Part shown: one piece after another, positions 8,045-22,791 of the stretch
How positions within the stretch are numbered: position 1 is the stretch's first letter
How the letters are laid out: every line of letters starts with the position of its first letter
Source: Pseudobdellovibrionaceae bacterium
Lineage (GTDB): Bacteria > Bdellovibrionota > Bdellovibrionia > Bdellovibrionales > Bdellovibrionaceae
NCBI GenBank assembly: GCA_030158485.1
Contig: JAOASS010000021.1
Coordinates: 1 to 64,000 of the forward strand
Direction of reading: 5' to 3'
DNA length: 64,000 nt
The notes under the pieces: model-generated
What the model saw: only the letters and a program-made list of their open reading frames with translations
What the model was told of the DNA's origin: nothing
Database searches by the model: none
Translations under genes and position numbers: made by a program

Positions 8045-8082
8045 AATTGAAGAAATGGGTTAAAAGAGAACAGGAGTTTTTT

Positions 8083-9084
8083 ATGAAAAAACTGATGTTA
8101 GGAATTGTCGCTATTTGCATGCTCGTGAGCGCGGCTCGTGCCGATAGTGGTTATTCGCAGCACACAAGGTATGAGCGAAATGAGAGCAAGCCTTTATCTA
8201 TCAGTGAATTTTTCTGCGCTGTCGCTGGTGGGACAGCAGCAGGCGTGATCATGAAAAGTGCAGGTGCTAACGATCCTTTTACGTTTTTAGGAGTACTTGT
8301 CGGCGGATTGATCGGCGCTGACTTTTGTAAATGGGTTCGTGATGATGTGAATATAGGTGCTCAATCCGCTGCTTTTAGAGCAGGTTTAGACAGCCCTGTG
8401 TGTAGCCAGAAATCTTGGCAAAGTCGTCATTACAAAGGAAATTTGAATATCATCAGTGAGAGTTGGAAAACAGGATCACATTATGATGCAGGGACGGATA
8501 ATATTTGTAAGCAATTTGAAACCACAATTTTTGAACACAGCGGAAAGTTTGTAGGTCGAACTCAGGCTTGGGCTTGCAAAAACAACGTGGGCAATTGGAT
8601 CGTGACTCATGAAAATTGGATTAACAAACAAAATGTTAAGACCTGTGGTTCATCGAGAATTGATTCAGGAGCTTACACCGGCCAGAGCCGCGTCGAAGCG
8701 CCGACTGAAATTAACACTCGTCATATTCGCGGAGTCTGGAGTTTAGAAAGATTTCGCCGCCATGTGAATGATTTAGGAACTGAGCGAGTTTTAAAATTGG
8801 CTCGCCGAACTGAATTTCCAGGTGAAGTTGAAGTGGGAATTCTAAAAGCACTTTCTGACGATGGCAGAGGTGTGATTATTTATTTTAGTCCCGAGCGACA
8901 AGTCGTTGTCGGAATTGATGATGTTGCAATCGAGTGCCGTGCAACTGATCTTTGTTACAATTCGGAAGTGACGACAAAAGATGGAATGGCAGGAAAACTT
9001 CAGTATGTTTTTAGAAATGGCGATGTTGTCATTAACGATTTAAAGCGTGGAATTAAAATGCGGCCAGCGAGTTATTTAAATTAA
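8083..9084 (+). CDS. Secreted glycine-zipper protein of unknown function
   Basis: I do not recognise a named family for the whole 333-residue protein. Residues 1-20 are a clear signal peptide ending ARA, so it is exported. Residues 43-84 form two small-residue-rich segments (AVAGGTAAGVIM and LGVLVGGLIGADF) resembling a glycine-zipper membrane pair. The rest is polar with paired cysteines. A C-terminal part ending LQYVFRNGDVVIND resembles the end of the next gene product (LILALYSNGDLLIRI), so the two are probably diverged paralogues. The ATG at 8083 has AGGAG upstream; a longer start at 8047 would bury the signal peptide. Confidence 0.75.
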   Translation: MKKLMLGIVAICMLVSAARADSGYSQHTRYERNESKPLSISEFFCAVAGGTAAGVIMKSAGANDPFTFLGVLVGGLIGADFCKWVRDDVNIGAQSAAFRAGLDSPVCSQKSWQSRHYKGNLNIISESWKTGSHYDAGTDNICKQFETTIFEHSGKFVGRTQAWACKNNVGNWIVTHENWINKQNVKTCGSSRIDSGAYTGQSRVEAPTEINTRHIRGVWSLERFRRHVNDLGTERVLKLARRTEFPGEVEVGILKALSDDGRGVIIYFSPERQVVVGIDDVAIECRATDLCYNSEVTTKDGMAGKLQYVFRNGDVVINDLKRGIKMRPASYLN

Positions 9085-9122: not shown

Positions 9123-10106
9123 ATGAAAACAAAATCCATGAGCGCTTTTTTAACGCTATCAATTTTGACGGCCTCTGTTTCACAAGCAGGATTTAGTGAA
9201 TTCATTGGGCAAATCACAGGTGGAATTATTGGTGGTGTACTTTGTAATGAATTAGGAATTGGCAAAGGAAGCGGGCGAACGGCGGCTGTGGCTTTATGTG
9301 CTGTCGGTGGATCCATGATTGGCGGCGAAATCGGCCGAGACATGGACGAAAATGATGCTCGAGCTTTTGAAGAGTCTCAAAGAAGATCATTTGATGGTGA
9401 TTTGAATCGTGATTATGATTGGGATGGTAGACGATATGGTTCACGCACTGGAATCAGAGGGCGAATGCGTCCTATTGAGCAGGGCTACCACCGACAAACT
9501 CGTGAAGTTTGCCGAGAATATCAAAGTGTGACTTACCGCGGGGACAGAACTTCTCGTACCAAAAGTATCGTTTGCCAAAGGTTTGATGGAACATTTTATT
9601 CATTAGATGAAAGAAGCCTATTTATTCGAGGCCAGTTGATTGAGCGAGAAAGAACTCGGACTGAAGGTCCTTCGCAAGTCGGTTCTGACCGCAGGTTGCC
9701 TCCGCCACCCAATCGGATACCGCATGAATCATCACAAGAACGCCAATACAATAGGGAATATGATCAAGATATCAACCCAAGAAGATCCAATTTTTGCGAA
9801 GCTTGGGATTTTGATCAAGTCCGAAGAGGCGACAGGGTCTACACACGAAGTGGATATGCTGTGACTTATAGTGGAATGAATAGATCACGTCGTACGGTGA
9901 GCGTTAACAACCAAGGTATGAATCAAATTATACGTCTTGAAGACATTGGAATCACGGGTTGCCACTACAACATCAGGACGGGACGTCAAGTGGGCACTCG
10001 ATACGGAGAGCAGGGTTTGATCCTGGCTCTGTATTCGAACGGAGATTTACTTATTCGAATAAACGGCATGAATGAGATTTACACTGAAAGTGAAATTCAT
10101 TATTGA
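9123..10106 (+). CDS. Secreted glycine-zipper (17 kDa surface-antigen-like) protein
   Basis: The signal peptide (1-22, ending SQA) is followed by a two-segment glycine zipper (ITGGIIGGVLCNELGIG and AVGGSMIGGEIGRDMDE, about 31-76). The sequence GRDMDENDARAFEE is typical of 2TM glycine-zipper proteins related to rickettsial 17 kDa antigen. A polar Arg/Tyr-rich middle follows, then a C-terminal beta-rich region (GDRVYTRSGYAVTYSG; LYSNGDLLIRI). There is no lipobox cysteine. It is 38 nt after its probable paralogue and likely co-transcribed. The role is unknown; family members associate with the outer membrane. Confidence 0.75.
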   Translation: MKTKSMSAFLTLSILTASVSQAGFSEFIGQITGGIIGGVLCNELGIGKGSGRTAAVALCAVGGSMIGGEIGRDMDENDARAFEESQRRSFDGDLNRDYDWDGRRYGSRTGIRGRMRPIEQGYHRQTREVCREYQSVTYRGDRTSRTKSIVCQRFDGTFYSLDERSLFIRGQLIERERTRTEGPSQVGSDRRLPPPPNRIPHESSQERQYNREYDQDINPRRSNFCEAWDFDQVRRGDRVYTRSGYAVTYSGMNRSRRTVSVNNQGMNQIIRLEDIGITGCHYNIRTGRQVGTRYGEQGLILALYSNGDLLIRINGMNEIYTESEIHY

Positions 10107-10133: not shown

Positions 10134-10781
10134 CTACTTCTTGGCTTCTGCTAAGTCTTTAAATTGATTGTAAGTCTTTTGCTGCTTATCTATTTCTTTT
10201 TGCCAGCGTGAAACTTCACCTTCATATCCGCGCTTTTTATTGCGCCATTCTGATTCTTGAGCATTCAAAGCTTTTAATCGATCGGCCACTTGTTTTTCCT
10301 GATCTTTCAAATTGAGACCACGTTGATCCCAAACTTTCTTTTCTTCAATCACTTGCGTTTGCTGGACTTTGTATGATTGCATGTTTTGATCACGCTTTGA
10401 TTTGTTTTCTTGGATTTTTGCGATCATGGCCTGTAGCTCTAAAATCTTTTTATCTTCCAGTGTGGATTTTGTTTCTTCATCTTTTAAAAGCTTCAAAAGA
10501 TCTTGATCACTTTTTTTAAGTCGTTGTTGATTTGTGGAATTTTCTTTAATTTGAGAAGCTACTTGCTTTTTTTGTTCTTCAACTTTTGATTTAGCTTTGT
10601 TTACTTCTTGAATATTTCCATCAACAATTTTAAGATTTTTTTTGTAATCTTCTAAGTTGGCTTTTGCATTTTCAAGATTTTCTTTAATTTTCGCAATACC
10701 ATCTTGAGCTGTCGATTTTGCATAAACAAGAGAACTTGCTACACATAATGCCGTAAGAGTTGAAAGTAGTTGTTTATTCAT
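10134..10781 (-). CDS. Periplasmic coiled-coil protein, last gene of the Glt-like cluster
   Basis: Residues 1-21 form a signal peptide ending VYA. Almost all of the remaining 190 residues are charged heptad-rich sequence (Lys/Glu/Gln with regular Leu/Ile), predicting a long coiled coil from about residue 27 to 210. There are no cysteines in the mature part and no enzymatic motif. It follows the TPR/coiled-coil gene by 18 nt with AGGAG ahead of the ATG, so it belongs to the same transcript. I infer a structural part in the periplasm, for example a spacer or scaffold of the motor complex, but no named homologue is recognisable. Confidence 0.7.
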   Translation of the reverse strand: MNKQLLSTLTALCVASSLVYAKSTAQDGIAKIKENLENAKANLEDYKKNLKIVDGNIQEVNKAKSKVEEQKKQVASQIKENSTNQQRLKKSDQDLLKLLKDEETKSTLEDKKILELQAMIAKIQENKSKRDQNMQSYKVQQTQVIEEKKVWDQRGLNLKDQEKQVADRLKALNAQESEWRNKKRGYEGEVSRWQKEIDKQQKTYNQFKDLAEAKK

Positions 10782-10799
10782 TGGAGCTCCTCATTAAAC

Positions 10800-12842
10800 T
10801 TATTTAGTATCTTCTTGTGCGCAGACGTTTTTTAAAGAGGACCTGAAGTGACCGATTTCGTCTTCCCAGATCTCACCTTTGAAACTCCATTGCATTTCTT
10901 TGTTTTTAGCTACTTTAAGTTGATCACGCTGTTCCTTGTTGACGTCTCCGCCAGCGGTTTGATAACGGATATGTTCACCGGCGCCTGCGTAAATTTCATA
11001 CTGAAGAACTTCGTTTTGATCTAAAAGATTTTTTAAATCATCCACCATTTTATCAAATCTTTTCTTCAAAGTATCTGAGGCCAGTAACCGCAAGCTTAAT
11101 TTGTCTTTTTCAAGTTTTTGAGAAGCAATATCACGAATGACTTTAACTTGATTGCGGGCTCTGTTAATGTTTGAGGATTCATACTTGAGTGCTGACAATG
11201 TTTTTACAAGCTGAGCTTCTTCAGTTAGTAATATTTCTTTGTTAGCTTTTGAATCGTTCATTTTAATACGAATCTCGGATAATGTTTTATTTGTATTATT
11301 TTGAAGTTTGAGAATATCTTTTTCACGTTGAATTAAGTTCAAAGTAATTTTATTAAAGTTGGATATTTCATCTTCATAGCTGTTAATATTTTCTTGAATA
11401 TTAACATAAGATGGATGCCGAGCCCATTCCACAATAAAAGATCGTGGCAGTCCGTCCACTTCTTTTTGTTCCGGAGATTTCAGCCAAGCTTTAACTGAAG
11501 AGTAATAATCGGCAGAATTTTTATGCGCTTGTTTATAAGCTCCTAGTTTGCCAAAAAGTGGACCGTATTTTCTGCCTAAGTTTTGTAATACTGCTTGAGC
11601 ATCACCAAACTGGCACAAATTCAAATAAGCCACTGTTCGCACTACGTAGGATTCTGGGTTGTAGGCATTTTTAAAAAAATCTGTGTGAAGTGAAAACATA
11701 TTTCCAGCGGCACCTTCAAAATCTTTTACTAGAATTTGTGACCAAGACTGTTCCACCATTCCTTGAAGCCAAAAATTCTGTGATTTATCAACTTCTAAGT
11801 AAGCTTGAAAAGCTTCTTTGAATTGATTTTTTTGGAAATGAATTCGTGCCCGTGTGATAGCGGCTAAAGTATGAATAGTATCTTCTTTTGTTGTGCGTTT
11901 AAGAACTTGCTCAAACAGCTGGGCCGCTTTTTCAATTTGTCCTTGGCGGTAATTAAAAAGTCCTGAAATAAAAAGAGCATCGCTGTAGTAAGAAGACTTT
12001 TCAGGAATCAGTGTGACCGCATCTTCGACTTGCCCTAGATTTCCTTGTTCCAAATAGTGTTTAGCGCGGTAAAAATTGTAATCATCATTTGAGCTCACAT
12101 CGATATCATTTTGTTGAACAAGAGGTTCGATTTCTTTTACATCATAGTAATCAAGTAGCTTGATATGACTGACAAGTTGTTGAACTGCTAATTGTTTGAG
12201 GTCTTTGTCTGAACTTTCTTTTGCAACGGAGTAGAGGGAATTTCTAAACTCTTTTGGTAAACCTAATTTTCTAGCAGCCTCAGCGTAATGATACAAAGCT
12301 TCTGTCCGAACAGATTTGTCATTCAGAAGTTCTGAAAGAATGGGCAGTGCCATATCATTATTTTGATGAATCTGAAGGAAAATAAGTCCTTCGATCAGCT
12401 TGTATTCATTGCTTGTGAATTGCTTAATATCTTTTAATATTGTGCTGGACTCATTTAATACGGGATCACTGATCTCTTTTAATTCTTTTATGTTGGGAAC
12501 CTTTGATATTGTTTGGGGCGACACAAATATCGTGGCCGTTTTGACAGTTTCAGGTTGAGCTTTTTTTGTATCGTATGAAAGTATCTGAACTTCTTGAGCT
12601 TTTTTAAAAGCAGCTGTTGTCTGTTGAGGAGTATTGATTGGTGCCAGATCTTTCACATTTTCTTTTAAAGTTCTTTCTTCACCCACTTTTAATCTTGGTA
12701 GGCGAGCGTTTGGGACTGCATCATAAGTTGCAACTCCTGAAGACTTTATTTTCATACCACTGGCACGCGATCCAGATGAAACCACATCTAAATCGGCAGC
12801 TAAAGCAGTTGAAGTTAATATTGTAAGAACCAGAAGTTTCAT
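10800..12842 (-). CDS. Periplasmic TPR / coiled-coil protein of the Glt-like cluster
   Basis: This is a 680-residue exported protein with signal peptide MKLLVLTILTSTALA. The middle (about 140-440) is made of helical repeat pairs of TPR type, for example ALFISGLFNYRQGQIEKAAQLFEQVLKR. The C-terminal third is coiled coil and ends with the segment WSFKGEIWEDEIGHF followed by a lone Cys. TPR proteins of this kind occur in Myxococcus gliding (glt) clusters as periplasmic scaffolds. The start is the ATG at 12842 with GGAG 6 nt upstream; a TTG at 12854 overlaps that site and is unlikely. Exact correspondence to a particular Glt subunit is not assignable by eye. Confidence 0.72.
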   Translation of the reverse strand: MKLLVLTILTSTALAADLDVVSSGSRASGMKIKSSGVATYDAVPNARLPRLKVGEERTLKENVKDLAPINTPQQTTAAFKKAQEVQILSYDTKKAQPETVKTATIFVSPQTISKVPNIKELKEISDPVLNESSTILKDIKQFTSNEYKLIEGLIFLQIHQNNDMALPILSELLNDKSVRTEALYHYAEAARKLGLPKEFRNSLYSVAKESSDKDLKQLAVQQLVSHIKLLDYYDVKEIEPLVQQNDIDVSSNDDYNFYRAKHYLEQGNLGQVEDAVTLIPEKSSYYSDALFISGLFNYRQGQIEKAAQLFEQVLKRTTKEDTIHTLAAITRARIHFQKNQFKEAFQAYLEVDKSQNFWLQGMVEQSWSQILVKDFEGAAGNMFSLHTDFFKNAYNPESYVVRTVAYLNLCQFGDAQAVLQNLGRKYGPLFGKLGAYKQAHKNSADYYSSVKAWLKSPEQKEVDGLPRSFIVEWARHPSYVNIQENINSYEDEISNFNKITLNLIQREKDILKLQNNTNKTLSEIRIKMNDSKANKEILLTEEAQLVKTLSALKYESSNINRARNQVKVIRDIASQKLEKDKLSLRLLASDTLKKRFDKMVDDLKNLLDQNEVLQYEIYAGAGEHIRYQTAGGDVNKEQRDQLKVAKNKEMQWSFKGEIWEDEIGHFRSSLKNVCAQEDTK

Positions 12843-12875
12843 GATGAGCTCCAAAAAGTAAAAAAATATTTTAAA

Positions 12876-13643
12876 CTATTTATTGTTTTCGCCCCACCAA
12901 GAAAAAATTGATAAACCGATTATAAGTGAAGTGTCGTTGATTGATTTTGATCCAGCGTCGGCTCGGGTCTTAAAGTTGATTTGTTTTTGCGAACTGACCG
13001 TATTGACAAAATCGACTTTAATCGCAGCGAGTCTGTTAAAGTAAAACTGCTGGGTGATACCTAGACTGTAACCTAAAGCTGAAGCTTTTTCGGACTTTTC
13101 TTGTCCCGTGGGGGATGTTCCCACGTAGTATTTTCTTTCATAATCAAAATGACCTACACCAAATGAAAGCCCCATATCAAAATGGATAATCTTTTTATCC
13201 ATCACTGACATTTTTGCGTAAATCGGGAACCAAAGACCACTGATAACCGCTTTACCTTTTGCTTCATTCACTTTAGGGCCGCCTCCTAAAGAAGTGATGT
13301 CTTTGAATGAACGACTATCTGAAAAATTTGTCGTTAGATAGGTTCCTTCAAGGCCCCAAGTTTCGTTAAAAAAATATCCGACAGACGCTCCTAAATAGGA
13401 ACCTGTATAATAGGGGTCATTGATTGTTTGCCCCAGATGAGCTGTTCCGTAGAATCTTTTAGCTTTTGAAAAAGCACGATTTTGAACCACACTAAAATCA
13501 TCATCTTTTGCGGCCCAGTATTTTTGCTCAAGAGCTTTGACATCCAGTTTATCACTTCCTGATTGGCCAAACGTTTGTGTCGGTAACAAACTTAATGCGA
13601 TCAATAGCGACGCGGCCTGGAGGGTGATTCGAAGTGTTTTCAT
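12876..13643 (-). CDS. Outer-membrane beta-barrel protein (GltA/GltB-like position)
   Basis: After a signal peptide (about 1-27, ending TFG) and a polar linker, residues from about 65 to the end alternate hydrophobic and polar residues in strands such as YLGASVGYFFNETWGLEGTY and IHFDMGLSFGVGHFDY. This matches small eight-stranded barrels found in delta-type proteobacteria. It ends with a short hydrophilic tail. The ATG at 13643 follows AGGAG by 8 nt; an upstream ATG at 13667 is less likely. In Myxococcus, barrels of the glt locus connect the periplasmic bridge to the surface adhesin, and the operon position suggests the same job here. Confidence 0.75.
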   Translation of the reverse strand: MKTLRITLQAASLLIALSLLPTQTFGQSGSDKLDVKALEQKYWAAKDDDFSVVQNRAFSKAKRFYGTAHLGQTINDPYYTGSYLGASVGYFFNETWGLEGTYLTTNFSDSRSFKDITSLGGGPKVNEAKGKAVISGLWFPIYAKMSVMDKKIIHFDMGLSFGVGHFDYERKYYVGTSPTGQEKSEKASALGYSLGITQQFYFNRLAAIKVDFVNTVSSQKQINFKTRADAGSKSINDTSLIIGLSIFSWWGENNK

Positions 13644-13675
13644 GTTGTGGTCTCCTGTTACTTTCATGGCAAAAT

Positions 13676-15100
13676 TTAATTCGTGCTTTTAAATAAAAAT
13701 GGGTAAGTGACAATGACTTTCGTTCCACCAGTTGGGGCGGGGAAGTTCCATTTTGCGACTCGGTTCAAAATACAACCTTCAACAGTGTTATCTTTCATTG
13801 TTGATTCTGTAATATTTTGTGTTTCAACGGCCCCTTGTCCGCCGATGGTGAATTTGACGGAAACTTTACCACCTAAATCTTTTCGAGATGAAAGTTGTCG
13901 TTCGTAGCAAGCTAAAATATGGCCTATTTGTTTTTTAATATATTCTGCGATGATATCTCGATCAAGACCGCCGGAAACTTCACCTTCATCTTCGATTAAG
14001 CCAACGCCGCCAAGTCCTGTTTTTCCAGCCACTAAACCACCCAGTCCCGCGAGGTTGCGCCCCCCACCTTTACCAACAGTATTGACACCGAAACCGTTAC
14101 CTTTTGAATCTGCTCCCCAGTCCTTACCAGACACGTTTTCTTTACCTAAAGCAGAAAGGGCTCGTCCAGAAGGCCCAGAACCAGCGACTACGCCTTGTTG
14201 AACAATGATATTTTTAGAAGCAATCGCTCCGGCTGAAACTTTTCCAACAAGTTGAGATATTCGACCAGCACTAAAAGATTTAAGCAATCCGCCCACTTTT
14301 CCGCCACCACCAGCCACTTTTTTTTGTTCTGTTTGTTCGATGACTTGTGCTTTTTTTTCTGCTTGTTTGCGATTTTTGAGTTGGTCAATTTTAACAATCA
14401 TTTTTTGTGGTTCTTTGGGTATGACGGCCACAATTTGATCTTGAGATTGAGGAGTTAAAATAAAAAGCAGTCCTAATACCAAACAGATACTCAGAGTAAT
14501 AACAAGTGGCTTTTTAGTTTCTTCGTCAAGAAATTCATTCTTTGCCATTTTTGCAAGTGAAGTGGCATCAGCTAAATTGACTGTTTTTTGTTGAACAACG
14601 TAATTTTCAAAACTTTGCTTGATCCATGAAGCTGATTTTTGAACAGGAATCTGAATTGCCGGAGAACATTCTGTTAACGAAAAGGATTCGTTCATTTCAG
14701 AAACTTGGCTTCTCATGAATTGACCTTGAAAAGTCAGAACAAAAAGCTGACAAGTTTTGGATCCGTCTGTTGGACTTGAGAAGCTTTCAAAAGCTTGAAG
14801 GTTATCATAATTTTTTTGAACAATTTCGAACTCAATAACACTTTGATCAAAAATTATTTTAGTTCCAGTACTAACTTGGCAGGTTTTATTATTTTCTACT
14901 CGCTGAGAGTTGACATCAACATAGATCCAGCCTTTTTCTGTTAATTGAAAAACGCCCTCAAAAGGCATAAGGCTTTGATCGATTGAACTAATTCCCGAAA
15001 TTCGAGATGTTCCAAATGTGCATGGTGATTGGCTTGGTTTGACTTTCCAAACTTTTTGAACACCATCTTGTCTTAACTGCTTTACGATCAGTGTCTTCAT
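13676..15100 (-). CDS. FHA-like / TM / AgmX-PglI C-terminal domain protein (GltG-like)
   Basis: This 474-residue single-pass protein has three parts. Residues 1-95 look like an FHA fold (CTFGTSRISG, then a Gly-Trp-x-x-x-Asp strand and ENN turn), though the phosphopeptide-binding residues are not clearly conserved. A membrane helix spans about 198-216. A Gly-rich periplasmic linker follows. Residues from about 380 match the AgmX/PglI C-terminal domain: IAEYIKKQIGHILACYERQL, a V-x-FTIGGQG strand and WNFPAPTGG, which is TonB-like. In Myxococcus GltG has FHA-TM-TonB organisation and links the inner-membrane motor to the outer membrane. AAAGGGG lies just upstream of the ATG. Confidence 0.85.
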   Translation of the reverse strand: MKTLIVKQLRQDGVQKVWKVKPSQSPCTFGTSRISGISSIDQSLMPFEGVFQLTEKGWIYVDVNSQRVENNKTCQVSTGTKIIFDQSVIEFEIVQKNYDNLQAFESFSSPTDGSKTCQLFVLTFQGQFMRSQVSEMNESFSLTECSPAIQIPVQKSASWIKQSFENYVVQQKTVNLADATSLAKMAKNEFLDEETKKPLVITLSICLVLGLLFILTPQSQDQIVAVIPKEPQKMIVKIDQLKNRKQAEKKAQVIEQTEQKKVAGGGGKVGGLLKSFSAGRISQLVGKVSAGAIASKNIIVQQGVVAGSGPSGRALSALGKENVSGKDWGADSKGNGFGVNTVGKGGGRNLAGLGGLVAGKTGLGGVGLIEDEGEVSGGLDRDIIAEYIKKQIGHILACYERQLSSRKDLGGKVSVKFTIGGQGAVETQNITESTMKDNTVEGCILNRVAKWNFPAPTGGTKVIVTYPFLFKSTN

Positions 15101-15117
15101 GAGGCCCCTTTAAACAT

Positions 15118-15378
15118 TTATTTCACGTAAAAACTAGAATCCCGAATCCGACTATCCATGTCTTTTTTGACATCATAAAGAGGTAAAAATTGAATACCTC
15201 TTTTTTGTACGAGAAACGCTCCGTCGGGATTGCGAATAGTGCCTTTTAAACTCATCTCACCGAAGTTAACTTCTTGAACTTTTCGGATAGTACGCTTTTT
15301 AGACTGAGCGAAGGATTGACAACAAAGTGTCATAACGAAAATGCAAAGACTCAAATTGCGACTTTTGAAAATATCCAT
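15118..15378 (-). CDS. Small secreted protein of the Glt-like cluster
   Basis: An 86-residue product has a signal peptide ending CQSFA near residue 24 and a 60-residue polar mature part (FGEMSLKGTIRNPDGAFLVQ). There is no known domain. AAGGAG precedes the ATG. It lies 17 nt before the FHA/AgmX gene and after a 146-nt gap holding a conserved 19-bp motif, so it heads the second half of the cluster. It is probably a small periplasmic accessory subunit. Confidence 0.7.
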   Translation of the reverse strand: MDIFKSRNLSLCIFVMTLCCQSFAQSKKRTIRKVQEVNFGEMSLKGTIRNPDGAFLVQKRGIQFLPLYDVKKDMDSRIRDSSFYVK

Positions 15379-15448
15379 AGGAATGAACTCCTTCCTCTAA
15401 GTTTACGGCATAATCAGATATAAAAATGAGCTAAAAATCCACTTTGTT

Positions 15449-15467
15449 CAAATTGGGACAAGCTAAG
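15449..15467 (-). promoter_or_regulatory. 19-bp motif shared with the vWA-gene upstream region
   Basis: On the minus strand the sequence is CTTAGCTTGTCCCAATTTG. It matches 17 of 19 positions of a motif upstream of the vWA lipoprotein gene at 22935-22953, in the same orientation. It lies about 70 bp upstream of the start of the small secreted protein gene. It may be a promoter element or activator site common to both halves of the gliding-like cluster. No consistent -10 hexamer follows at 17 bp in both cases. Confidence 0.45.
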
Positions 15468-15524
15468 AATATGATTTAATTGAATTATTTAGAAAGTGTC
15501 GAACTTTTGATGATCTTGATGCGA

Positions 15525-18500
15525 TTATTTTTTATAACTATTTAAAAATTCGATCTTTTTTTCGATCCATTTTTTTTGTTCAGAATCTTCGGCTAATACC
15601 AGAGCTTTTTTATACGAGTCTTGAGCTTTTGGTAATTCGGGTTTATCGACTTCGAATACTTTTGCTAAGTAAAGCCAAGCCGGTAAAGTATTTTTAAGAG
15701 AAGAACTTGTAATAGTTGTCACAGCACGTTCTGGATCGCCAGATTTATTAAGTGATTCAGCGTAGACCATAACCAAATTCAAGTTTTGTAGATCTAATTT
15801 TGAAAATTGACTTAAGATGTCTTTCACAGTTAACCAGTTCCCAGTCGAAGCCGCTTGAACAGCTTCAACCGCTTTTAAATCTGTTGTTGAAATTTGACTT
15901 TTATAAAGTTTTAAAAATTCAGGTTGAGCCGCTGTCCAGCCGTCAAGTTGTGCAATTAAGCGAGCTTTTTGGTAATTGAAGACATCATTAAATTGAGAAA
16001 TTTTAAGTGATTTTTCATTCAGCCACAGGGCTTTGTCTTTGAATCCTTGTTTGTCACTGGCAATAGATAAGTAAAAAAGACCCCATGCCCTATGAGCGGG
16101 AGTATCAGTTAAGTTTAAAGCTTCGCTTTCAAGAACTTTCCAGTTTTGTGAAAGAAAGCAATTGCCTAAAAGTTCTGGACGATTTTTTAATTCTTTATCT
16201 TTTTTGAAAGATTCAACCGAGCAGATTGGTTTTTTATTCGTATAAAGATTCCATTTTCCATCTGCCGACCAGTTGTCTGGAATAAAGACAGCAAGACTTT
16301 CAGGATTAAGTTCATAAAAGGCAAGGGGAGCCGTTTGCTCTGGACGCAAGTCGGCCCATAAAGTCTGAGAGCGGCCTGGAGTTGACTTTTTATTTAGATC
16401 TAAAATTGCTTTTTTATTTTCAGACTGTTTATCTTCAATTGGTTTTGTGATTTTTAAAAGTTCAGCTTTTAAAGCGTCTTGATCTTCTTTGGCCAAAGTG
16501 GAAGGTAAGTCCATTGACTGTAAAGAAGTCACAAAATTATCATAACTTCGATCAAGGCCTTCTAGAATCTGCAAAAGTAGAACGGGGTCGTTTGTCATTT
16601 TGGCCGAAGAATTATAAGCCGTCAGCGCTTTATCAAGTTTGTCAGTTTTAATATTTAACACAATTGAAAGTCGATCTTCTTTTGTTGTTTTAACACTTTG
16701 AGAAATGAGTTCTTGTTCGAGGACACGCGCTTGTATGTAACGAGCTTCAGCCCTGTGTCCCATGTCGATGTCTCGGCTCATGATCTGAGTTGCGCTTTGA
16801 AAAGCTTGTGTCCATTTTTTGTTATCTAAATGCTGACGAGATATTTTTGTTAAGTACTGTGTGCTGAGGGGTTCCACACCCTGTGACAAAAGCAATTGTT
16901 CAAATTGTTTATATTCTGTAGAATTCTTTTCTTGGGATGTAAAAGTTGATAAGTAACGATCTTGCAACTTTCGTTTGTCACTGCCTGAAGTCGAATTCAT
17001 AATGGCTTTCAAAATTTGCCGTGCTTCAGGTCCTTGTTTTTGTAAAATATGAAGCTCAACAATAAAGTCTTGTAACTTTCTTTTATTATCTCCTGAGGCT
17101 GATTTTATCATTTGCTGATAAACGATGAGCGACTGTTGAATACGTCCCGCATCTAAATAGGCTTGGGCGGCTTCTTTCAGAGCGTCTGCACACCGTTTGT
17201 CGTCTGGATACTGCTTCACAAAATCAAGTGATAAGTCAGCACCTTTGACGATAAAGCCGTCACTGTAGGCAAGGGAAAGTGATTGCCACAAAGCTTCTTT
17301 TGAAAGTTTAGATTCTGGATGAGTTTTTCTAAACTCAATCAATTTTTCAGAAGTCACAATTTTGGGTTGAGAATTAAGAGCACTTTGAATTTCAGAATAA
17401 TGAGCTTCTTCATAGATTTTCTGAAGAGATTTTTTTCGATCTAAACTGTCGGCTTCTTTTGAATAATGGCCTGCAATTTTTTTAAGTTCGGAATAATCTT
17501 TTCTAGAGTTATAAATATCAAGCATTAGATCTTGAGATTTGATACGAACTTCTTTATTTGTTTTTTGAGCAACAAGTGGGATCAAATATTTTTCAGCCTC
17601 AAGATCTTTATTCGCTTCGTATTCAGCTAATGCCAATTGTAATTGGACGGGAAGGGCATGGACCCCTTTAGGGTACTTCTCTAGATATATAAATGAAAGT
17701 TGACGGATGCGGTCTTGCTTAAATTTAGTTTTTTCTTTTTCAATTGATTTTTGAACTGAATAAAGTGACGCATAGTGAGAGTCGTGAGTCATGTTGGGTT
17801 CAGTCGAAGTTTGCCCCACTTTTTCGTATTGTGTGCTGGCTTCATCAAGCAGTCCTTGTTGAAACAGTAGTTCCGCTAAAGCATAACGTGTTTTAAAGTC
17901 TGGTTTATCGGGATCATCACCTTTTAAAACAAGGCGCAAAGCTTTTTCTGTTAATTTGGAAAACTCAGCATGACTTTTATTTTTTAACCAAATATCCCAC
18001 CACTTTTTAGCAATTTCTAAACTGGTTCTTCGAAAATCATTTTCACAAGATTCTGTTGCCCAAGTGAGTTCCTGTCTGGCTTTCCAAACTGAATCAAGAT
18101 CACAAAGTAGACTGCCTTCTTCTAAATTCTTTATGACATCTTCACGTTTTTTTAACACTTCGTTAGCCTCTACTAATATCATATGGGCTTTGAGACGATA
18201 GGAATGTGTTTTTTCATTTTTTAAAAACTCATTTAAAAACGTATGGATTTCTTTTTCTCGAGAATAAGATTGGTAAAGCTTTGCTGTGTTGATCATGGCT
18301 TGGCCTAATTCTTCAGCAGAAGCTATTTTTTTAAAGAATCCGTAAACATCTTCTCCTTTAATTTTATCTGCGATAAATAAGACTAAGTCTCGTAAAGCTT
18401 CTTGTCGTAAATAAAGGCGGCGAGTTTGATCAGTTGAAAGAGGATTTTTTTCGACGACTTCAATCAGTTTATCGATTGCTTGATCTGACAACTTCATATT

Positions 18501-19193
18501 GTAAAGTGTCCAAGCCAGTTTATAGATCCCGTAGGAGTAAACTTTACTTTCAGGAAATCTTTCAATATTTTCAAACGACGATTTGGCTTCTTTAAAGCGG
18601 GCTTGATCATAAAGAAGTTCCCCTAAGGCTATTAAGCCATCTGGAACAAGGGAAGAAGTCGGAAATTTATGAAGAAGTCTTTTATAAAGAAGTTCTGAAT
18701 TTTTGATGTCATTTAACTGCTGATTTGCAAAAGCATTATTAAATATGACTCCATCCATTTCTGAAAATTCAGGAAATCTTTTTTCAATTTCAAAATATGT
18801 TTGTGAAGCTTTCCGAATCCAATCTTTACCTTTTTTAGGAGGAATAGGAAAAGATGAAAGTTTAACAGCTTTTGTGTCGCTATTGAGATCAAAAAAGCGT
18901 CCTGTTTTGGCTTTACGCATGTAAAGTTCTGCTAATCGGTAAAGAAGATTAGCTTCTTGTGAAGTCCCTTTGTTTTTTTTTAAAAGACTCTGAAGGCTTT
19001 CAATCGCTTTGTCTTCAGTTTTCGAGATCATAATTTCTGAATGAAGCATCGTCTGTTCATTTTTTTCTTCATTTGAACTATTAAGCTTAAGTTCTGGTAA
19101 AAGGCCGCGCTTATCCTGTTTTTCTGCGGCGAGAGCATTTTTGCAAAGCAAAGAAATAAGTAGAATTGAAGTCAATGCTTTCAGAACGCTCAT
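15525..19193 (-). CDS. Very large periplasmic TPR protein (GltD/GltE-like)
   Basis: A 1222-residue exported protein has signal peptide MSVLKALTSILLISLLCKNALA. Helical repeats of TPR type run through most of its length; clear units include ANLLYRLAELYMRKAKTG, LALAEYEANKDLEAEKYLIP and the final AWLYLAKVFEVDKPELPKAQDSYKKALVLA. There are no catalytic motifs. Myxococcus glt clusters encode comparably large TPR proteins that form the periplasmic scaffold over the Agl motor, and this gene directly follows the two ExbD genes. I start at the ATG at 19193, 13 nt after the upstream stop. A TTG at 19217 would overlap the ExbD gene and add residues before the signal. Confidence 0.82.
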   Translation of the reverse strand: MSVLKALTSILLISLLCKNALAAEKQDKRGLLPELKLNSSNEEKNEQTMLHSEIMISKTEDKAIESLQSLLKKNKGTSQEANLLYRLAELYMRKAKTGRFFDLNSDTKAVKLSSFPIPPKKGKDWIRKASQTYFEIEKRFPEFSEMDGVIFNNAFANQQLNDIKNSELLYKRLLHKFPTSSLVPDGLIALGELLYDQARFKEAKSSFENIERFPESKVYSYGIYKLAWTLYNMKLSDQAIDKLIEVVEKNPLSTDQTRRLYLRQEALRDLVLFIADKIKGEDVYGFFKKIASAEELGQAMINTAKLYQSYSREKEIHTFLNEFLKNEKTHSYRLKAHMILVEANEVLKKREDVIKNLEEGSLLCDLDSVWKARQELTWATESCENDFRRTSLEIAKKWWDIWLKNKSHAEFSKLTEKALRLVLKGDDPDKPDFKTRYALAELLFQQGLLDEASTQYEKVGQTSTEPNMTHDSHYASLYSVQKSIEKEKTKFKQDRIRQLSFIYLEKYPKGVHALPVQLQLALAEYEANKDLEAEKYLIPLVAQKTNKEVRIKSQDLMLDIYNSRKDYSELKKIAGHYSKEADSLDRKKSLQKIYEEAHYSEIQSALNSQPKIVTSEKLIEFRKTHPESKLSKEALWQSLSLAYSDGFIVKGADLSLDFVKQYPDDKRCADALKEAAQAYLDAGRIQQSLIVYQQMIKSASGDNKRKLQDFIVELHILQKQGPEARQILKAIMNSTSGSDKRKLQDRYLSTFTSQEKNSTEYKQFEQLLLSQGVEPLSTQYLTKISRQHLDNKKWTQAFQSATQIMSRDIDMGHRAEARYIQARVLEQELISQSVKTTKEDRLSIVLNIKTDKLDKALTAYNSSAKMTNDPVLLLQILEGLDRSYDNFVTSLQSMDLPSTLAKEDQDALKAELLKITKPIEDKQSENKKAILDLNKKSTPGRSQTLWADLRPEQTAPLAFYELNPESLAVFIPDNWSADGKWNLYTNKKPICSVESFKKDKELKNRPELLGNCFLSQNWKVLESEALNLTDTPAHRAWGLFYLSIASDKQGFKDKALWLNEKSLKISQFNDVFNYQKARLIAQLDGWTAAQPEFLKLYKSQISTTDLKAVEAVQAASTGNWLTVKDILSQFSKLDLQNLNLVMVYAESLNKSGDPERAVTTITSSSLKNTLPAWLYLAKVFEVDKPELPKAQDSYKKALVLAEDSEQKKWIEKKIEFLNSYKK

Positions 19194-19206
19194 AGTGCAA
19201 CTCTCG

Positions 19207-19710
19207 TCAGTTCCCAATCACTGTGATTAATTTAACGTGAGGAAATCCAGCCATGCTAGCCGTATACATCACTTTTCTCAGTGTTTGGTAGGGTAGGTTT
19301 TGATCAGCCTGAAGAAGTAATTGTCCATTATCTTGTTCATCTGACTTTTTTGATTTTGGATCTTTTGCCCGTTCTTGCAGTTCTTTGAAAAGGGGTTGAA
19401 TAAAATTTGAATCTTGTGGGTCAACATCAGCGCTTGCGATTTGCCGATCTTTTACTGTTGCAACAACTTTGTCTAGTACGCGAATTTCATTTAGGCTGAT
19501 TGAAATTTGAAGAACATCCGTTGGATTTTTATAAGAATTCGAGTGCGGCAAAGTCAGTTGGTCAATCGGATTAATTTCAACTGAACTTGTTGAATAACTT
19601 TGAAGTAAGAATACCAGCAGCAAAGTAAACATATCTGTCATAGCTGTAATATTCAGTGCAAAAGTTGAGTTCTGTTTTACATCTAATGAAAAGCGACGAC
19701 GACGGCTCAT
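19207..19710 (-). CDS. ExbD/TolR family motor protein (AglQ/AglS-like), canonical Asp
   Basis: A 167-residue protein has a short basic cytoplasmic N-terminus and one membrane helix (about 18-40, LNITAMTDMFTLLLVFLL). This aligns with the ExbD helix LINVTPxxDVMLVLLIxFM, and Asp26 matches the proton-carrying Asp. The periplasmic domain ends with QTLRKVMYTASMAGFPHVKLIT, typical of the ExbD/TolR fold. With the upstream ExbB-type protein it should form a proton-driven stator. Its Asp distinguishes it from the preceding paralogue. It starts 1 nt after the preceding gene. Confidence 0.92.
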   Translation of the reverse strand: MSRRRRFSLDVKQNSTFALNITAMTDMFTLLLVFLLQSYSTSSVEINPIDQLTLPHSNSYKNPTDVLQISISLNEIRVLDKVVATVKDRQIASADVDPQDSNFIQPLFKELQERAKDPKSKKSDEQDNGQLLLQADQNLPYQTLRKVMYTASMAGFPHVKLITVIGN

Positions 19711-19711
19711 T

Positions 19712-20245
19712 CTAGCCCTCCATCATATTTACAAAAATTATTTCAGGAAACATATAATCTGTTGTCGTGTCTTTTCCTGTTTTTTCGTCTTTGATTGGAA
19801 ATCGAATGTTAAAGTCTCGACTTCGGCGAGCTTCATCCATCACGCGAACAACTTCGCTGTAGGCCACATTTCCTGAAGGTGCTAAGTCAATTTTAAATAC
19901 TTCAGGATGAAGCTTTTTAATTTCCCGGAAAGCCATGTGAAGTTTATTGAGATCAATTTGTCCTTCTTTAGATTCGACTGAAACAGATGATTTCGTACCG
20001 TTTGAATCAACTGTAATCATGATTTTTCGATCTGGAGTGACTTCTACTAGAACATTTTTTTTATTTTCTTTTTCTTGTTTTTCGATGGCTTCTGTTACGA
20101 CTTGTGGAAGGTCTGTTTCGATCACCATAATTTGCATAAAAGCACTTGAAAGTAAAAGGACTGGAACAAGTTTCATCATCACCGCAAGCAATGAAGCTAA
20201 ATCAACTTCAAGTTCAGAGTGATGATTTATTTTTAATTTTTTCAT
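19712..20245 (-). CDS. ExbD/TolR family protein lacking the membrane Asp
   Basis: A 177-residue bitopic protein has one N-terminal helix (about 16-40) and an ExbD/TolR-type periplasmic domain (SGNVAYSEVVRVMDEARRSRDF). Aligned to ExbD, the position of the proton-carrying Asp is Ala21 (LLAVMMKLVPVLLL), with Lys25 nearby and an Asp only at residue 15 near the helix edge. It may therefore be a structural or regulatory partner of the canonical subunit encoded next, or use Asp15 differently. It lies between the ExbB-type gene and the second ExbD gene in one operon. Confidence 0.85.
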   Translation of the reverse strand: MKKLKINHHSELEVDLASLLAVMMKLVPVLLLSSAFMQIMVIETDLPQVVTEAIEKQEKENKKNVLVEVTPDRKIMITVDSNGTKSSVSVESKEGQIDLNKLHMAFREIKKLHPEVFKIDLAPSGNVAYSEVVRVMDEARRSRDFNIRFPIKDEKTGKDTTTDYMFPEIIFVNMMEG

Positions 20246-20298
20246 GCGGCTCCATCTTTCAAAAGTGTCATCTGCAAAGAGTATTCATAAAGCTTCTA

Positions 20299-21021
20299 TT
20301 AAGAAGCTTTATGACCTGCCGGTGGAGGCGTTGTGCCGGATGCTCCTGGCGTTCGTGCGGGTGCGTCTGGGAAAATATTGGCTCGGTTAAGGGTCGGAAC
20401 GTGGGACCCCGTTAAGAGCTCTGTTAATTTTCCGGATTTTTCCTGGAGCTGTTCCAAAAGTTCATTTTGTCTTGAAAATAAGAATGAGTAGGCCACCATC
20501 ACGGGAATGGCAACGGCTAGTCCTAAAGCTGTTGTATAAAGAGACACGGAAATACCGTTAGCAAGTAATTGCTGTTTTGTTGCGGGGTCCGCTTGTGATA
20601 CGGCTTGGAAAGATAGAATCAGTCCATAAATCGTTCCCAAAAGACCTAACTGTGTTGCAACGTTTGCTAACATTGAAAGATAGTGCAGTCTTTTGGTGTA
20701 CATGGGAACAGCTTCGCTCATTGCAATGTCATGAGACTGAAAGATTGTTTCATCATCTCGGTCTGCTTTTTCTAAAATTGTTTTAAAAGCTTTTGCCATT
20801 GGTTTTTTTTCCAATTGATTGCAAAGAACAATAGCTTCATCAATTTTTTTAGAAAGGACTAGATTTTGGATTTTATTCATAAAACCTTCAGAATCCATTC
20901 CAAAACTGAAATAAAGGGCGCGAATTCGTTCAGCCACAAGTGCCATCGAGCCTACGCCTGTTGCGATAATAATAAATCCCATTGGGCCTGCGTGACTCAG
21001 TAAGCCTAAAATTCCATCCAT
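20299..21021 (-). CDS. ExbB/TolQ/MotA family proton channel (AglR-like)
   Basis: A 240-residue inner-membrane protein has three helices (about 12-30, then around ATQLGLLGTIYGLILSF, then SLYTTALGLAVAIPVMVAYSF). The GLLGTIxGL segment and TTALGLAVAIP are the ExbB/TolQ hallmarks that form the ion path with ExbD-type helices. The C-terminal 30 residues are unusually Pro/Gly/Ala-rich (RTPGASGTTPPPAG), a possible protein-docking tail. The ATG at 21021 has GGAGG 6 nt ahead; a TTG at 21033 lies within that site. Together with two ExbD proteins it reproduces the AglR-Q-S motor set of Myxococcus gliding. Confidence 0.92.
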   Translation of the reverse strand: MDGILGLLSHAGPMGFIIIATGVGSMALVAERIRALYFSFGMDSEGFMNKIQNLVLSKKIDEAIVLCNQLEKKPMAKAFKTILEKADRDDETIFQSHDIAMSEAVPMYTKRLHYLSMLANVATQLGLLGTIYGLILSFQAVSQADPATKQQLLANGISVSLYTTALGLAVAIPVMVAYSFLFSRQNELLEQLQEKSGKLTELLTGSHVPTLNRANIFPDAPARTPGASGTTPPPAGHKAS

Positions 21022-21121
21022 TGTTTCCTCCAAGTTTGTCAGGCTTTTTTAAAAGTCTGACACTTATTAAGCCTTCTTCAAATCTTGGATGGATTAAAAC
21101 TTTTTTTCAAAAACCCTTTAT

Positions 21122-21691
21122 TTAAAAGAGTGTTTTGATTTGTTTTAAACCATCTGCTTGCACCTGGAGGAAACGTACGGCGTATTGCAAAGCTGATTTG
21201 GTATTAAGTCTTTGTTTTGTAAAGTTTTTTCGGACGACTTGCGCCAGAACTTTAAATCCTTCTGGAAAAGTTGAACTTGCACAAAAGTGTACAACAATTT
21301 GATCGTCTGGAAGCAATAGGGGCGTGTTGATTAAAATCAGTGCTCCATTTTGAGAAATACTTTTGCAGTCACCATCGAAGAATGTAGAGCCATTATGACC
21401 CATGACAGGACTTAAGACATCCTTTCGGTTGGCTTCGCGTTTTGAAAACTCATCACGCAAAGCTTGATTTTCACGAATCAAAAGGGCTAGTCTGTCTTTC
21501 GAAAAATCAGCACATTCACCCAGCATTTGCCATGTTTCCAAGTGAGGCGCCCAGACATAGTTATAATCTTGGATTTCGTTACATTGAACCATCTTAATCA
21601 TGACTTCATAATCATAGGGACCGTATTGTGTGTCCCCGCGAAGAATATGCCAATTTTTTAATTCTAGATTGAGTTGTCCAATATTTGTCAT
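21122..21691 (-). CDS. GYF_2-PilZ fusion protein, candidate c-di-GMP regulator of the motor
   Basis: A cytosolic 189-residue protein. Residues 13-58 match the GYF_2 domain: Trp14, GPY at 24-26, VWAP at 47-50, and Trp54 followed by MLGE. A short helical linker leads to a PilZ domain: RxxxR at Arg85 and Arg89, then SISQNG at 111-116 corresponding to [D/N]xSxxG with Ser in the first position. Cyclic di-GMP binding is therefore plausible. In Myxococcus the GltJ protein carries a GYF domain controlling focal-adhesion assembly, so a separate GYF-PilZ protein beside the motor suggests second-messenger input. The ATG at 21691 has GAGGG ahead of it. Confidence 0.85.
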   Translation of the reverse strand: MTNIGQLNLELKNWHILRGDTQYGPYDYEVMIKMVQCNEIQDYNYVWAPHLETWQMLGECADFSKDRLALLIRENQALRDEFSKREANRKDVLSPVMGHNGSTFFDGDCKSISQNGALILINTPLLLPDDQIVVHFCASSTFPEGFKVLAQVVRKNFTKQRLNTKSALQYAVRFLQVQADGLKQIKTLF

Positions 21692-21714
21692 GCCCACCCT
21701 CGTTGTCGTTAGCT

Positions 21715-22791
21715 TTATATTAAAGTCGTTGGATCGTAAGTAATTTGAATATTATCATCTGCAGCAGGAACTGATTCTGGTGCAAATCGGATCGAATTCA
21801 CAGTCGCGTCGTATTGCCAAGTTGTCGAGCTTTCAGATAATTGAGTGCCGTTAACTTTCACCAAAATACTTCCTGGCTGTGGTTGACGGTCTAATTTAAA
21901 AACGGCTGAAGCAACAAGGATCTTATCTTTGATACTTTGAAGGACTGTTGTAAATGGATCACAGAGGCTTGCTTTAACACCGCCTGTAGCATCAGCAATT
22001 TGACCATATCGAACTGCGATTTTTTGTGATGAGTTGTTTAAAGAGGCTAAGCAAGCTGAGTCTTTGATATAAATCGCATTCACTTGGTAGGCATCTTTTC
22101 GATTGGTTGAGTTACTTCCAGTTAAAGTATCAAGGTATGAAACATAATTATTGACTGGAATTAGTTTGGGATCGTTGTAATTTTCTGAAAAAGAGCTATC
22201 AGTTCTTGAAAAGTCTTCTTCATCACTGACGATAACAACTGCTAAAAAAGCGCTGCTTCTTCTAAAGTCAGCATTTGCGGAATTGCTGAGTGATCTTTGA
22301 AGACTAGCAAAAGCTCTTTCGTCGCCATTTCCATTAATCCCGACAGTCGCATTTGTGGTAAAAACTGAATTCAGGCTTGGAGTATTTTTATCCATTACAA
22401 AAACACCACTGTTGGTGGGTGTTGACCCGGTTCTATTGCCCGTTCTCCAACGCGAACTGTACAGTTGATTGCTGTTATACTGCTCAAACCAAGTATCACT
22501 TGTTGTTGTGGACATGCGGAAATCGTATTTAAGTGTGACAAAATCTTGGATAAAAGAGTTAAAGTTATTTGCGAGGTTTGTTTGTGAAGACTGCATTGAA
22601 CCTGAATTATCGATGACCCACAAGATATCAACCGGGCGAGGTTGAGTCGTAATAGAAACTTTAAAATTTTCTTCTGCAGATAAAATAGAAACGCCACCAC
22701 CTGATTTGTCACAAGCTGTAAGACCTAAAGTTAAAAGTCCTGCAACTGCTGATACTTTTAAAGTTTTCTGTCCTGTTGTTAACGTTTTCAT
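21715..22791 (-). CDS. vWA-domain outer-membrane lipoprotein (CglB-like candidate adhesin)
   Basis: A 358-residue lipoprotein has lipobox LTAC with Cys27. A von Willebrand A domain spans about 53-295: the metal-binding MIDAS motif DNSGS sits at 61-65 (Asp61, Ser63, Ser65), and a conserved acidic turn VSDEEDF at 188-194. A short C-terminal beta-rich domain follows (about 300-358). CglB of Myxococcus is a vWA lipoprotein that acts as the surface adhesin of the gliding machine. This gene heads a cluster encoding the matching motor and bridge, so the same role is my inference. GAGGGT precedes the ATG by 8 nt. Confidence 0.82.
   Translation of the reverse strand: MKTLTTGQKTLKVSAVAGLLTLGLTACDKSGGGVSILSAEENFKVSITTQPRPVDILWVIDNSGSMQSSQTNLANNFNSFIQDFVTLKYDFRMSTTTSDTWFEQYNSNQLYSSRWRTGNRTGSTPTNSGVFVMDKNTPSLNSVFTTNATVGINGNGDERAFASLQRSLSNSANADFRRSSAFLAVVIVSDEEDFSRTDSSFSENYNDPKLIPVNNYVSYLDTLTGSNSTNRKDAYQVNAIYIKDSACLASLNNSSQKIAVRYGQIADATGGVKASLCDPFTTVLQSIKDKILVASAVFKLDRQPQPGSILVKVNGTQLSESSTTWQYDATVNSIRFAPESVPAADDNIQITYDPTTLI

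What the first reader, a model, noticed from the sequence alone, without database searches (positions are those of the whole stretch)
10134..22791. Compact Agl/Glt-type gliding machine with a CglB-like vWA adhesin gene in the same cluster
In one leftward run I see a vWA lipoprotein, a GYF-PilZ regulator, ExbB, two ExbD, a giant TPR protein, FHA-TM-AgmX/PglI (GltG-like), an outer-membrane barrel and two periplasmic helical proteins. Motor, bridge, barrel and an adhesin-like surface protein are each represented. In Myxococcus the adhesin CglB (a vWA lipoprotein) works with the Agl-Glt complex, but its gene is not fused into the core motor cluster to my knowledge. Adhesin-motor co-location suggests a self-contained focal-adhesion system, perhaps used for prey contact or surface gliding.
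Basis: partly seen in the sequence, partly recalled or inferred. Interest (0 to 1): 0.75.

Follow-up and report, generated by a model that had tools for sequence, protein, structure and literature searches.

The report
Gliding-type motor operon with built-in adhesin
This is the Bdellovibrio-family version of a proton-driven, envelope-spanning motor related to the Myxococcus gliding machine, carrying its own integrin-like surface-adhesin gene; the operon is already known in Bdellovibrio bacteriovorus (genes Bd1473-Bd1483), but its adhesin position has been refilled with a different adhesin during evolution, which points to testable candidates for the missing Bdellovibrio gliding adhesin.

Summary
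Ten leftward genes at 10134-22791 encode a MIDAS/vWA lipoprotein, GYF-PilZ protein, ExbB, two ExbD, a giant TPR protein, a GltG-like protein, an OM barrel, a GltC-like protein and a coiled-coil protein. The same order occurs in B. bacteriovorus HD100 as the long-known "agl/tonB" operon Bd1473-Bd1483, so this is a new member, not a new machine. Published work fits an adhesive motor: transposon hits in Bd1481 (AglR) and Bd1483 (vWA) weaken biofilm predation alike, and bd1480 is surface-induced. But delta-bd1483 invades prey normally, so "prey entry" is not supported. The vWA protein is integrin-like and a distant superfamily relative of CglB, not a CglB. What is new here: the adhesin sits in this operon in 19 of 21 related genomes of the family; in other families the operon holds a different vWA clade, whose Bdellovibrionaceae orthologue (Bd3099) lies elsewhere beside its own GYF-PilZ gene. 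One in-cluster vWA lineage is rejected (p 0.0004), while the motor is one clade: the adhesin was swapped. Most likely a surface-gliding/biofilm machine; function remains inferred.

The parts
21715..22791 (-). vWA/MIDAS lipoprotein (358 aa), orthologue of Bd1483; candidate surface adhesin
   Evidence: Lipobox C27 and MIDAS D61xSxS65 invariant; NF052240 MIDAS adhesin 4e-17, CglD 3e-15; AF2 pLDDT 84.8; integrin alpha-I Z 15.4, beta-integrin head Z ~14 over ~250 aa
21122..21697 (-). GYF-PilZ cytoplasmic protein (191 aa), orthologue of Bd1482; candidate c-di-GMP/cGAMP-responsive adaptor
   Evidence: GYF_2 4.5e-9, PilZ 3.8e-8; RxxxR kept, second PilZ motif degenerate (SxSxxG)
20299..21033 (-). ExbB/TolQ/AglR-type proton-channel subunit, orthologue of Bd1481
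   Evidence: MotA_ExbB 8.7e-26; tree
19712..20245 (-). ExbD-like subunit 1 (AglQ/S type; Bd1480 orthologue); TM proton-path Asp replaced by Ala
   Evidence: ExbD 4.4e-18; alignment
19207..19710 (-). ExbD-like subunit 2; TM Asp kept
   Evidence: ExbD 1.1e-15; alignment
15525..19217 (-). Giant periplasmic TPR protein (1230 aa), GltD-like plus GltE-like regions in one protein
   Evidence: TPR hits; split into ~970 + ~300 aa genes in other families, the short one GltE-like 3e-4 in L048
15118..15378 (-).
   Evidence: NF033764 CglF E 0.0013; family profile finds it in all cluster types
13676..15100 (-). GltG-like force transducer: degenerate FHA region, TM, Gly-rich linker, AgmX/PglI-TonB C-terminus
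   Evidence: GltG 8e-32, AgmX/PglI 2.5e-30, TonB_C 3.7e-4; FHA not detected here
12876..13667 (-). Outer-membrane beta-barrel of the myxobacterial-type OMP family
   Evidence: TIGR04565 OMP_myx_plus 8.2e-22, above cut-off
10800..12854 (-). GltC-like periplasmic TPR protein (684 aa)
   Evidence: NF033756 GltC 1.3e-34
10134..10781 (-). Secreted coiled-coil protein (215 aa), conserved last gene of the operon
   Evidence: Present in the same place in nearly all clusters examined

Best explanation
The operon encodes a proton-driven, trans-envelope force-transducing complex of the Agl/Glt type with a dedicated surface adhesin. ExbB/ExbD1/ExbD2 form the inner-membrane motor; the GltG-like transducer carries motion through the periplasm to the TPR proteins (GltD/E, GltC), GltF and the coiled-coil protein; these act on the outer-membrane barrel, which displays or engages the MIDAS lipoprotein; the lipoprotein grips the substratum (surface, biofilm matrix) in a metal-dependent catch-and-release manner, so that motor work drags the cell; the GYF-PilZ protein couples second-messenger state (c-di-GMP or cGAMP) to engagement. 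Shown here: gene content, order, orthology with Bd1473-Bd1483, MIDAS and lipobox conservation, integrin-like fold (predicted), and replacement of the adhesin gene within an otherwise vertically inherited operon. Inferred: adhesion, force coupling, second-messenger control, and gliding or biofilm penetration as the biological output.
For: Gene identities. Identical order in HD100 (G040; 3,782,950 bp, as given for HD100 in PMC3539863; it carries Bd0875 at 730 bits over a cut-off of 700) in L150. vWA heads the cluster in 19 of 21 relatives. Motor is one clade across the order (97*, Bdellovibrionaceae 100*), while the in-cluster vWA genes as one lineage are rejected (delta lnL 190.7, p-AU 0.0004): the position was refilled with another vWA. 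The displaced vWA (Bd3099 type) is next to a GYF-PilZ gene in 19 of 19 genomes. Published: Tn in Bd1481 (aglR) and in Bd1483 give near-identical biofilm-predation defects, 36.2% and 38.4% reduction (PMC2277423); bd1480 and bd3099 are both surface-induced and lower in the non-gliding bd0367 mutant (PMC9140294); Bd1482 proposed as c-di-GMP receptor (PMC3271064); Bd1483 found in a surface secretome (PMC11003981).
Against: delta-bd1483 has normal prey invasion (PMC11003981), and no gliding test of it was found. The Bd0828-0838-type cluster is closer to M. xanthus Glt (GltG 234, GltC 188 bits against 111 and 120 here) and is the gliding candidate of PMC3169522. The vWA gene is absent from the operon in 2 of 21 family relatives and 6 of 11 other-family clusters. 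ExbD1 lacks the TM Asp. The lipoprotein has Asp at +2 of its lipobox, an inner-membrane signal in E. coli, though orthologues vary there. The 2008 Tn insertions may be polar and were made in host-independent strains.
Confidence: 0.6

Rival explanations
1. The complex is an Agl/Glt-type core used for something other than locomotion: powering export, assembly or remodelling of surface material or TonB-like transport (as the related Nfs complex serves the M. xanthus spore coat), with the vWA lipoprotein as a periplasmic or surface assembly factor.
For: Core complexes occur widely in bacteria not known to glide and Nfs is non-motility (PMC3169522). The Bd0828-type cluster is the closer gliding homologue. 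Bd1473-1483 is raised in HI growth and lowered on prey entry, and TonB-like transport was proposed (PMC2797640). One ExbD has lost its TM Asp.
Against: bd1480 induction on surfaces and its drop in a non-gliding mutant; equal biofilm defects of motor and vWA mutants; conserved MIDAS/integrin-like adhesin architecture.
Confidence: 0.25
2. The vWA gene is an operon neighbour with an independent adhesive role and no physical link to the motor.
For: Close vWA relatives stand alone in many genomes (L158-L175) and two family clusters have lost the gene (L043, L045).
Against: In 19 of 21 family clusters it heads the operon; three of four Agl/Glt cluster types in HD100/Tiberius and the Bacteriovoracia clusters also contain a vWA gene; when one vWA left, another took the place.
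Confidence: 0.1
3. It is a prey-contact or prey-entry machine.
For: The non-invading epibiotic P. exovorus (probably G004, 2,657,893 bp; JSS is 2.658 Mb in PMC11656739) lacks the operon and both vWA types; Bd0875, a relative, acts in invasion (PMC11003981).
Against: delta-bd1483 invades normally; Bd1481 and Bd1483 Tn mutants still form halos on thin prey lawns; the operon goes down 30 min into predation.
Confidence: 0.05

Closest known systems
Bd1473-Bd1483 operon of Bdellovibrio bacteriovorus HD100 (one of four 'tonB/agl' operons)
   Same: Identical gene content and order, including vWA and GYF-PilZ at the head and the small GltF-like gene (L150).
   Different: Nothing structural found; vWA proteins only about 43% identical (Tiberius orthologue).
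Agl-Glt gliding machine of Myxococcus xanthus
   Same: ExbB/ExbD-type motor and GltC-, GltG-, GltF-, GltD/E- and barrel-like parts.
   Different: One compact operon; no GltJ-like membrane protein found in it, instead a soluble GYF-PilZ; TPR proteins joined; MIDAS adhesin inside the operon; GltG/GltC scores far below the curated cut-offs.
CglB (von Willebrand A adhesin of M. xanthus focal adhesions)
   Same: Lipoprotein with MIDAS vWA and a related C-terminal beta domain (profile match 93.8%, E 1.7e-7).
   Different: Not Cys-rich; 16 bits to the CglB model (cut-off 200); Myxococcota CglD-like proteins match CglB as well or better.
Bd0875 MIDAS adhesin (prey invasion)
   Same: Same architecture: lipobox, MIDAS domain inserted in a small beta domain (PMC11003981).
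   Different: 62 bits against a cut-off of 700; PMC11003981 reports that Bd1483 lacks the Bd0875 cap; different locus; Bd1483 is not needed for invasion.
Bd3099-Bd3100 vWA + GYF-PilZ pair
   Same: Homologous adhesin and homologous GYF-PilZ side by side; bd3099 surface-induced (PMC9140294).
   Different: Separate locus without motor genes in Bdellovibrionaceae; belongs to the vWA clade that sits inside the operon in other families.

Membership tests
Agl-Glt type core complex (AglR/Q/S, GltC/D/E/G) | One ExbB-type and two ExbD-type subunits together with GltC, GltG and GltD/E-type TPR proteins in one region | tested here: met
   all present; but scores are below NCBIfam equivalog cut-offs (GltC 120 of 450, GltG 111 of 650), so a diverged member
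Agl-Glt gliding machine (extended set) | GltF and outer-membrane GltA/B-type barrel present | tested here: met
   CglF/GltF model E 0.0013 (18.8 bits, cut-off 90) and conservation in all clusters; TIGR04565 barrel above cut-off; GltA/B identity of the barrel not resolved
Agl-Glt gliding machine (extended set) | GltH, GltI, GltJ, GltK | tested here: inconclusive
   No such protein in the operon by NCBIfam; the GYF domain resembles one domain of GltJ only. PMC3169522 reports them absent from Bdellovibrio
Agl-Glt gliding machine | Drives cell gliding | not testable with these tools
   Needs clean deletions; literature indirect
CglB | Curated score over 200 bits | tested here: not met
   16.3 bits, 13 bits
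CglB | OM lipoprotein with MIDAS vWA plus C-terminal beta domain | tested here: met
   Lipobox and MIDAS invariant; C-terminal profile match E 1.7e-7; OM location itself not tested
MIDAS-family adhesin Bd0875 (NF052240) | Curated score over 700 bits | tested here: not met
   62.3 bits; HD100 Bd0875 scores 730
Bd1473-Bd1483 operon | Orthologous genes in the same order | tested here: met
   L150 layout; motor tree groups window and HD100 in one clade
PilZ c-di-GMP receptor | RxxxR and (D/N)xSxxG motifs | tested here: inconclusive
   RxxxR kept; second motif SxSxxG in window and HD100
FHA-domain GltG | Recognisable FHA domain | tested here: not met
   None in window or HD100 at E 0.05; orthologue L048 has it at 1.5e-11

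The most novel reading that the evidence does not exclude
Agl/Glt-type motors in Bdellovibrionota have an exchangeable adhesin position: the same motor was re-equipped with a different MIDAS adhesin, while the displaced adhesin kept a GYF-PilZ partner at a second locus (Bd3099-Bd3100) and still serves the same motor, giving the cell two second-messenger-gated grips for one engine.
Probability: 0.35. Interest if true: 0.72.

Novelty: new member of a known kind. Interest (0 to 1): 0.52.

Why it matters
[quoted passage not shown] The conserved operon, the swapped adhesin and the remote Bd3099-Bd3100 pair name specific candidates (Bd1483 and Bd3099 as adhesins, Bd1482 and Bd3100 as adaptors), and suggest why single adhesin deletions may look normal: the second adhesin may cover. 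None of the papers found here links the MIDAS protein Bd1483 to the gliding operon as its adhesin, though the pieces are all published.

Tried and rejected
vWA query in viral contigs: no match. Sequence search of the PDB with the vWA profile: none. Defence-system reading (Zor-like ExbB): only weak ZorA matches, E 2e-4 or worse, explained by the shared MotA/ExbB fold. RNA families: only two tRNAs in the window. Promoter and terminator scans gave no excess over shuffles worth using. CglB as the family was tested and rejected as membership; in the global profile comparison the other-family in-cluster vWA and the Bacteriovoracia vWA gave no CglB match, perhaps owing to few sequences. A wholesale move of the vWA+GYF-PilZ pair was considered: the GYF tree instead favours the in-cluster GYF-PilZ genes as one lineage, so I claim replacement only for the adhesin and duplication for GYF-PilZ. 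The CglB papers themselves (PMC9946355, PMC11135422) are not held.
Full report
Observation. The region holds ten minus-strand ORFs as described, with domains confirmed by Pfam and NCBIfam: vWA lipoprotein 21715-22791, GYF-PilZ 21122-21697, ExbB 20299-21033, ExbD 19712-20245 and 19207-19710, TPR protein 15525-19217, GltG-like 13676-15100, OM barrel 12876-13667, GltC-like 10800-12854, coiled coil 10134-10781. The 424-bp gap at 15101-15524 contains an eleventh gene (15118-15378, 86 aa, signal peptide by eye) conserved in the clusters examined and matching the CglF model (E 0.0013), CglF being GltF (PMC4488436).

Identity. The genome (2.48 Mb, G000) is unnamed; its relatives include G007 and G040, whose chromosome lengths, 3,988,594 and 3,782,950 bp, are those of B. 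bacteriovorus Tiberius and HD100 (PMC3539863). G040 also encodes Bd0875 above the curated cut-off. HD100 locus L150 shows the same ten-gene order plus the GltF-like gene. With literature tags (Bd1480 aglQ, Bd1481 aglR, Bd1482 PilZ, Bd1483 MIDAS lipoprotein; PMC9140294, PMC2277423, PMC3271064, PMC11003981) the window cluster is the Bd1473-Bd1483 operon, listed in PMC2797640 as one of four tonB/agl operons. So the system is known; the window holds a new member.

The adhesin. The vWA protein has an invariant lipobox Cys and MIDAS DxSxS. Its model (pLDDT 84.8, residues 1-43 low) matches integrin alpha I domains (Z 15.4, 185 residues, 3.1 A) and the beta-integrin head over about 250 residues, i.e. 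vWA inserted in a small beta domain (Z about 14, 5-7 A); Foldseek also lists pilus adhesins PitA, RrgA and SpaC. It belongs to a superfamily with Bd0875, CglD and CglB, but to none of these families by curated cut-offs. Its C-terminal beta domain matches that of CglB (93.8%, E 1.7e-7), though CglD-like proteins match CglB at least as well.

Conservation and swap. In 21 Bdellovibrionaceae relatives with the head of the cluster assembled, 19 carry the vWA gene there. In other families of the order, 5 of 11 clusters carry a vWA gene, but of another clade (B). Trees: clade A (98*) contains stand-alone copies with the in-cluster Bdellovibrionaceae genes nested as one group (98*, including two stand-alone copies from clusters that lost theirs; one further operon-linked copy, L107, lies outside it); clade B (98*) contains in-cluster genes of other families and a Bdellovibrionaceae group (99*) that lies elsewhere, always beside a GYF-PilZ gene (19 of 19). 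Holding all in-cluster vWA genes together is rejected (delta lnL 190.7, p-AU 0.0004), whereas ExbB supports one motor lineage (97*). The simplest reading is that the adhesin was replaced in the Bdellovibrionaceae lineage while a GYF-PilZ copy went with the old adhesin. The GYF tree fits in-cluster descent plus duplication and cannot settle the order of events. In HD100 the remote pair is Bd3099-Bd3100: PMC9140294 calls bd3099 a vWA gene and PMC2797640 calls Bd3100 a pilZ gene; the tag assignment rests on position, lipobox and these descriptions, as no annotation was at hand.

Wider pattern. Two of the other three HD100/Tiberius cluster types carry a vWA gene at the 3' end (Bd2368-2377 type, L151/L064; Bd0412-0420 type, L065), the Bd0828-0838 type none. 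Clusters from Bacteriovoracia-type genomes begin with a vWA gene followed by barrel, GltC, GltF, ExbB, ExbD, ExbD, TPR and GltG (L087, L092, L096, L117). One deltaproteobacterial MAG has a CglD-like gene divergent from a Glt-like cluster (L086). CglB genes in five Myxococcales genomes had no such neighbours within the fetched 14-19.5 kb. Adhesin-motor co-location is thus a common trait of Bdellovibrionota.

Function. Published: Tn insertions in Bd1481 and Bd1483 reduce biofilm predation alike without stopping halo formation on lawns; bd1480 and bd3099 rise on surfaces and are low in the non-gliding bd0367 mutants; the operon is raised in HI growth and lowered early in predation; delta-bd1483 invades normally. 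Together these favour a surface or biofilm locomotion role over prey entry. The own genome encodes an MglA-like GTPase (identified by eye from the sequence). Against a simple story stands the Bd0828-type cluster, closer to M. xanthus and preferred by PMC3169522, also present in this genome (L063). The probable P. exovorus genome keeps only that type (L157), so loss of the operon accompanies one epibiotic lineage; a single loss proves nothing, and its gliding is not reported in what I found.

Mechanism, with status. Motor, transducer, periplasmic scaffold, barrel: by homology. Adhesin at the surface: by lipobox, fold and the surface-secretome report on Bd1483. Control by GYF-PilZ: inferred; its second PilZ motif is degenerate. 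Asymmetric motor: ExbD1 has Ala or Ser where other ExbD have the TM Asp in all Bdellovibrionaceae clusters checked, ExbD2 keeps it.

Limits. ORFs were called mechanically; family membership of genomes is by the tool's codes; no species tree was built; adjacency counts come from one sample of 40 relatives; starts may be misplaced; vWA and ExbB trees are quick searches with SH-aLRT support only.

Noticed in passing
window 19712-20245 (ExbD1) versus 19207-19710 (ExbD2): ExbD1 lacks the transmembrane Asp (Ala/Ser instead) in all Bdellovibrionaceae copies of this operon checked, while ExbD2 and the paralogous clusters keep it: an asymmetric ExbD pair.
   Followed up: partly
window 15118-15378: Overlooked 86-aa GltF/CglF-like gene between the TPR and GltG-like genes, conserved in all Agl/Glt cluster types of the phylum examined.
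   Followed up: yes
L152 (HD100, 3.008 Mb) and L178-L195: Stand-alone vWA + GYF-PilZ gene pair (probable Bd3099-Bd3100) in 19 of 19 Bdellovibrionaceae genomes examined.
   Followed up: yes
L157 (G004, 2,657,893 bp, probably P. exovorus JSS): This epibiotic predator keeps only the Bd0828-type Agl/Glt cluster and lacks this operon and both vWA types, whereas a congener (G023) has them.
   Followed up: partly
L086:101-10876: A CglD-like vWA gene (999 aa) lies about 340 bp from, and divergent to, a Glt-like cluster (OMP, GltC, two TPR, GltF-like) in a deltaproteobacterial MAG.
   Followed up: no
L062 (own genome C14): A third Agl/Glt-like cluster in this genome with a Bd0875-like vWA gene about 2.8 kb upstream, separated by two opposite-strand genes.
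   Followed up: no
window 5533-5880: Small stand-alone PilZ-like protein (115 aa), by eye, just upstream of a MurJ-like flippase gene.
   Followed up: no
window 8047-9084 and 9123-10106: Two adjacent glycine-rich secreted proteins convergent with the operon, function unknown.
   Followed up: no
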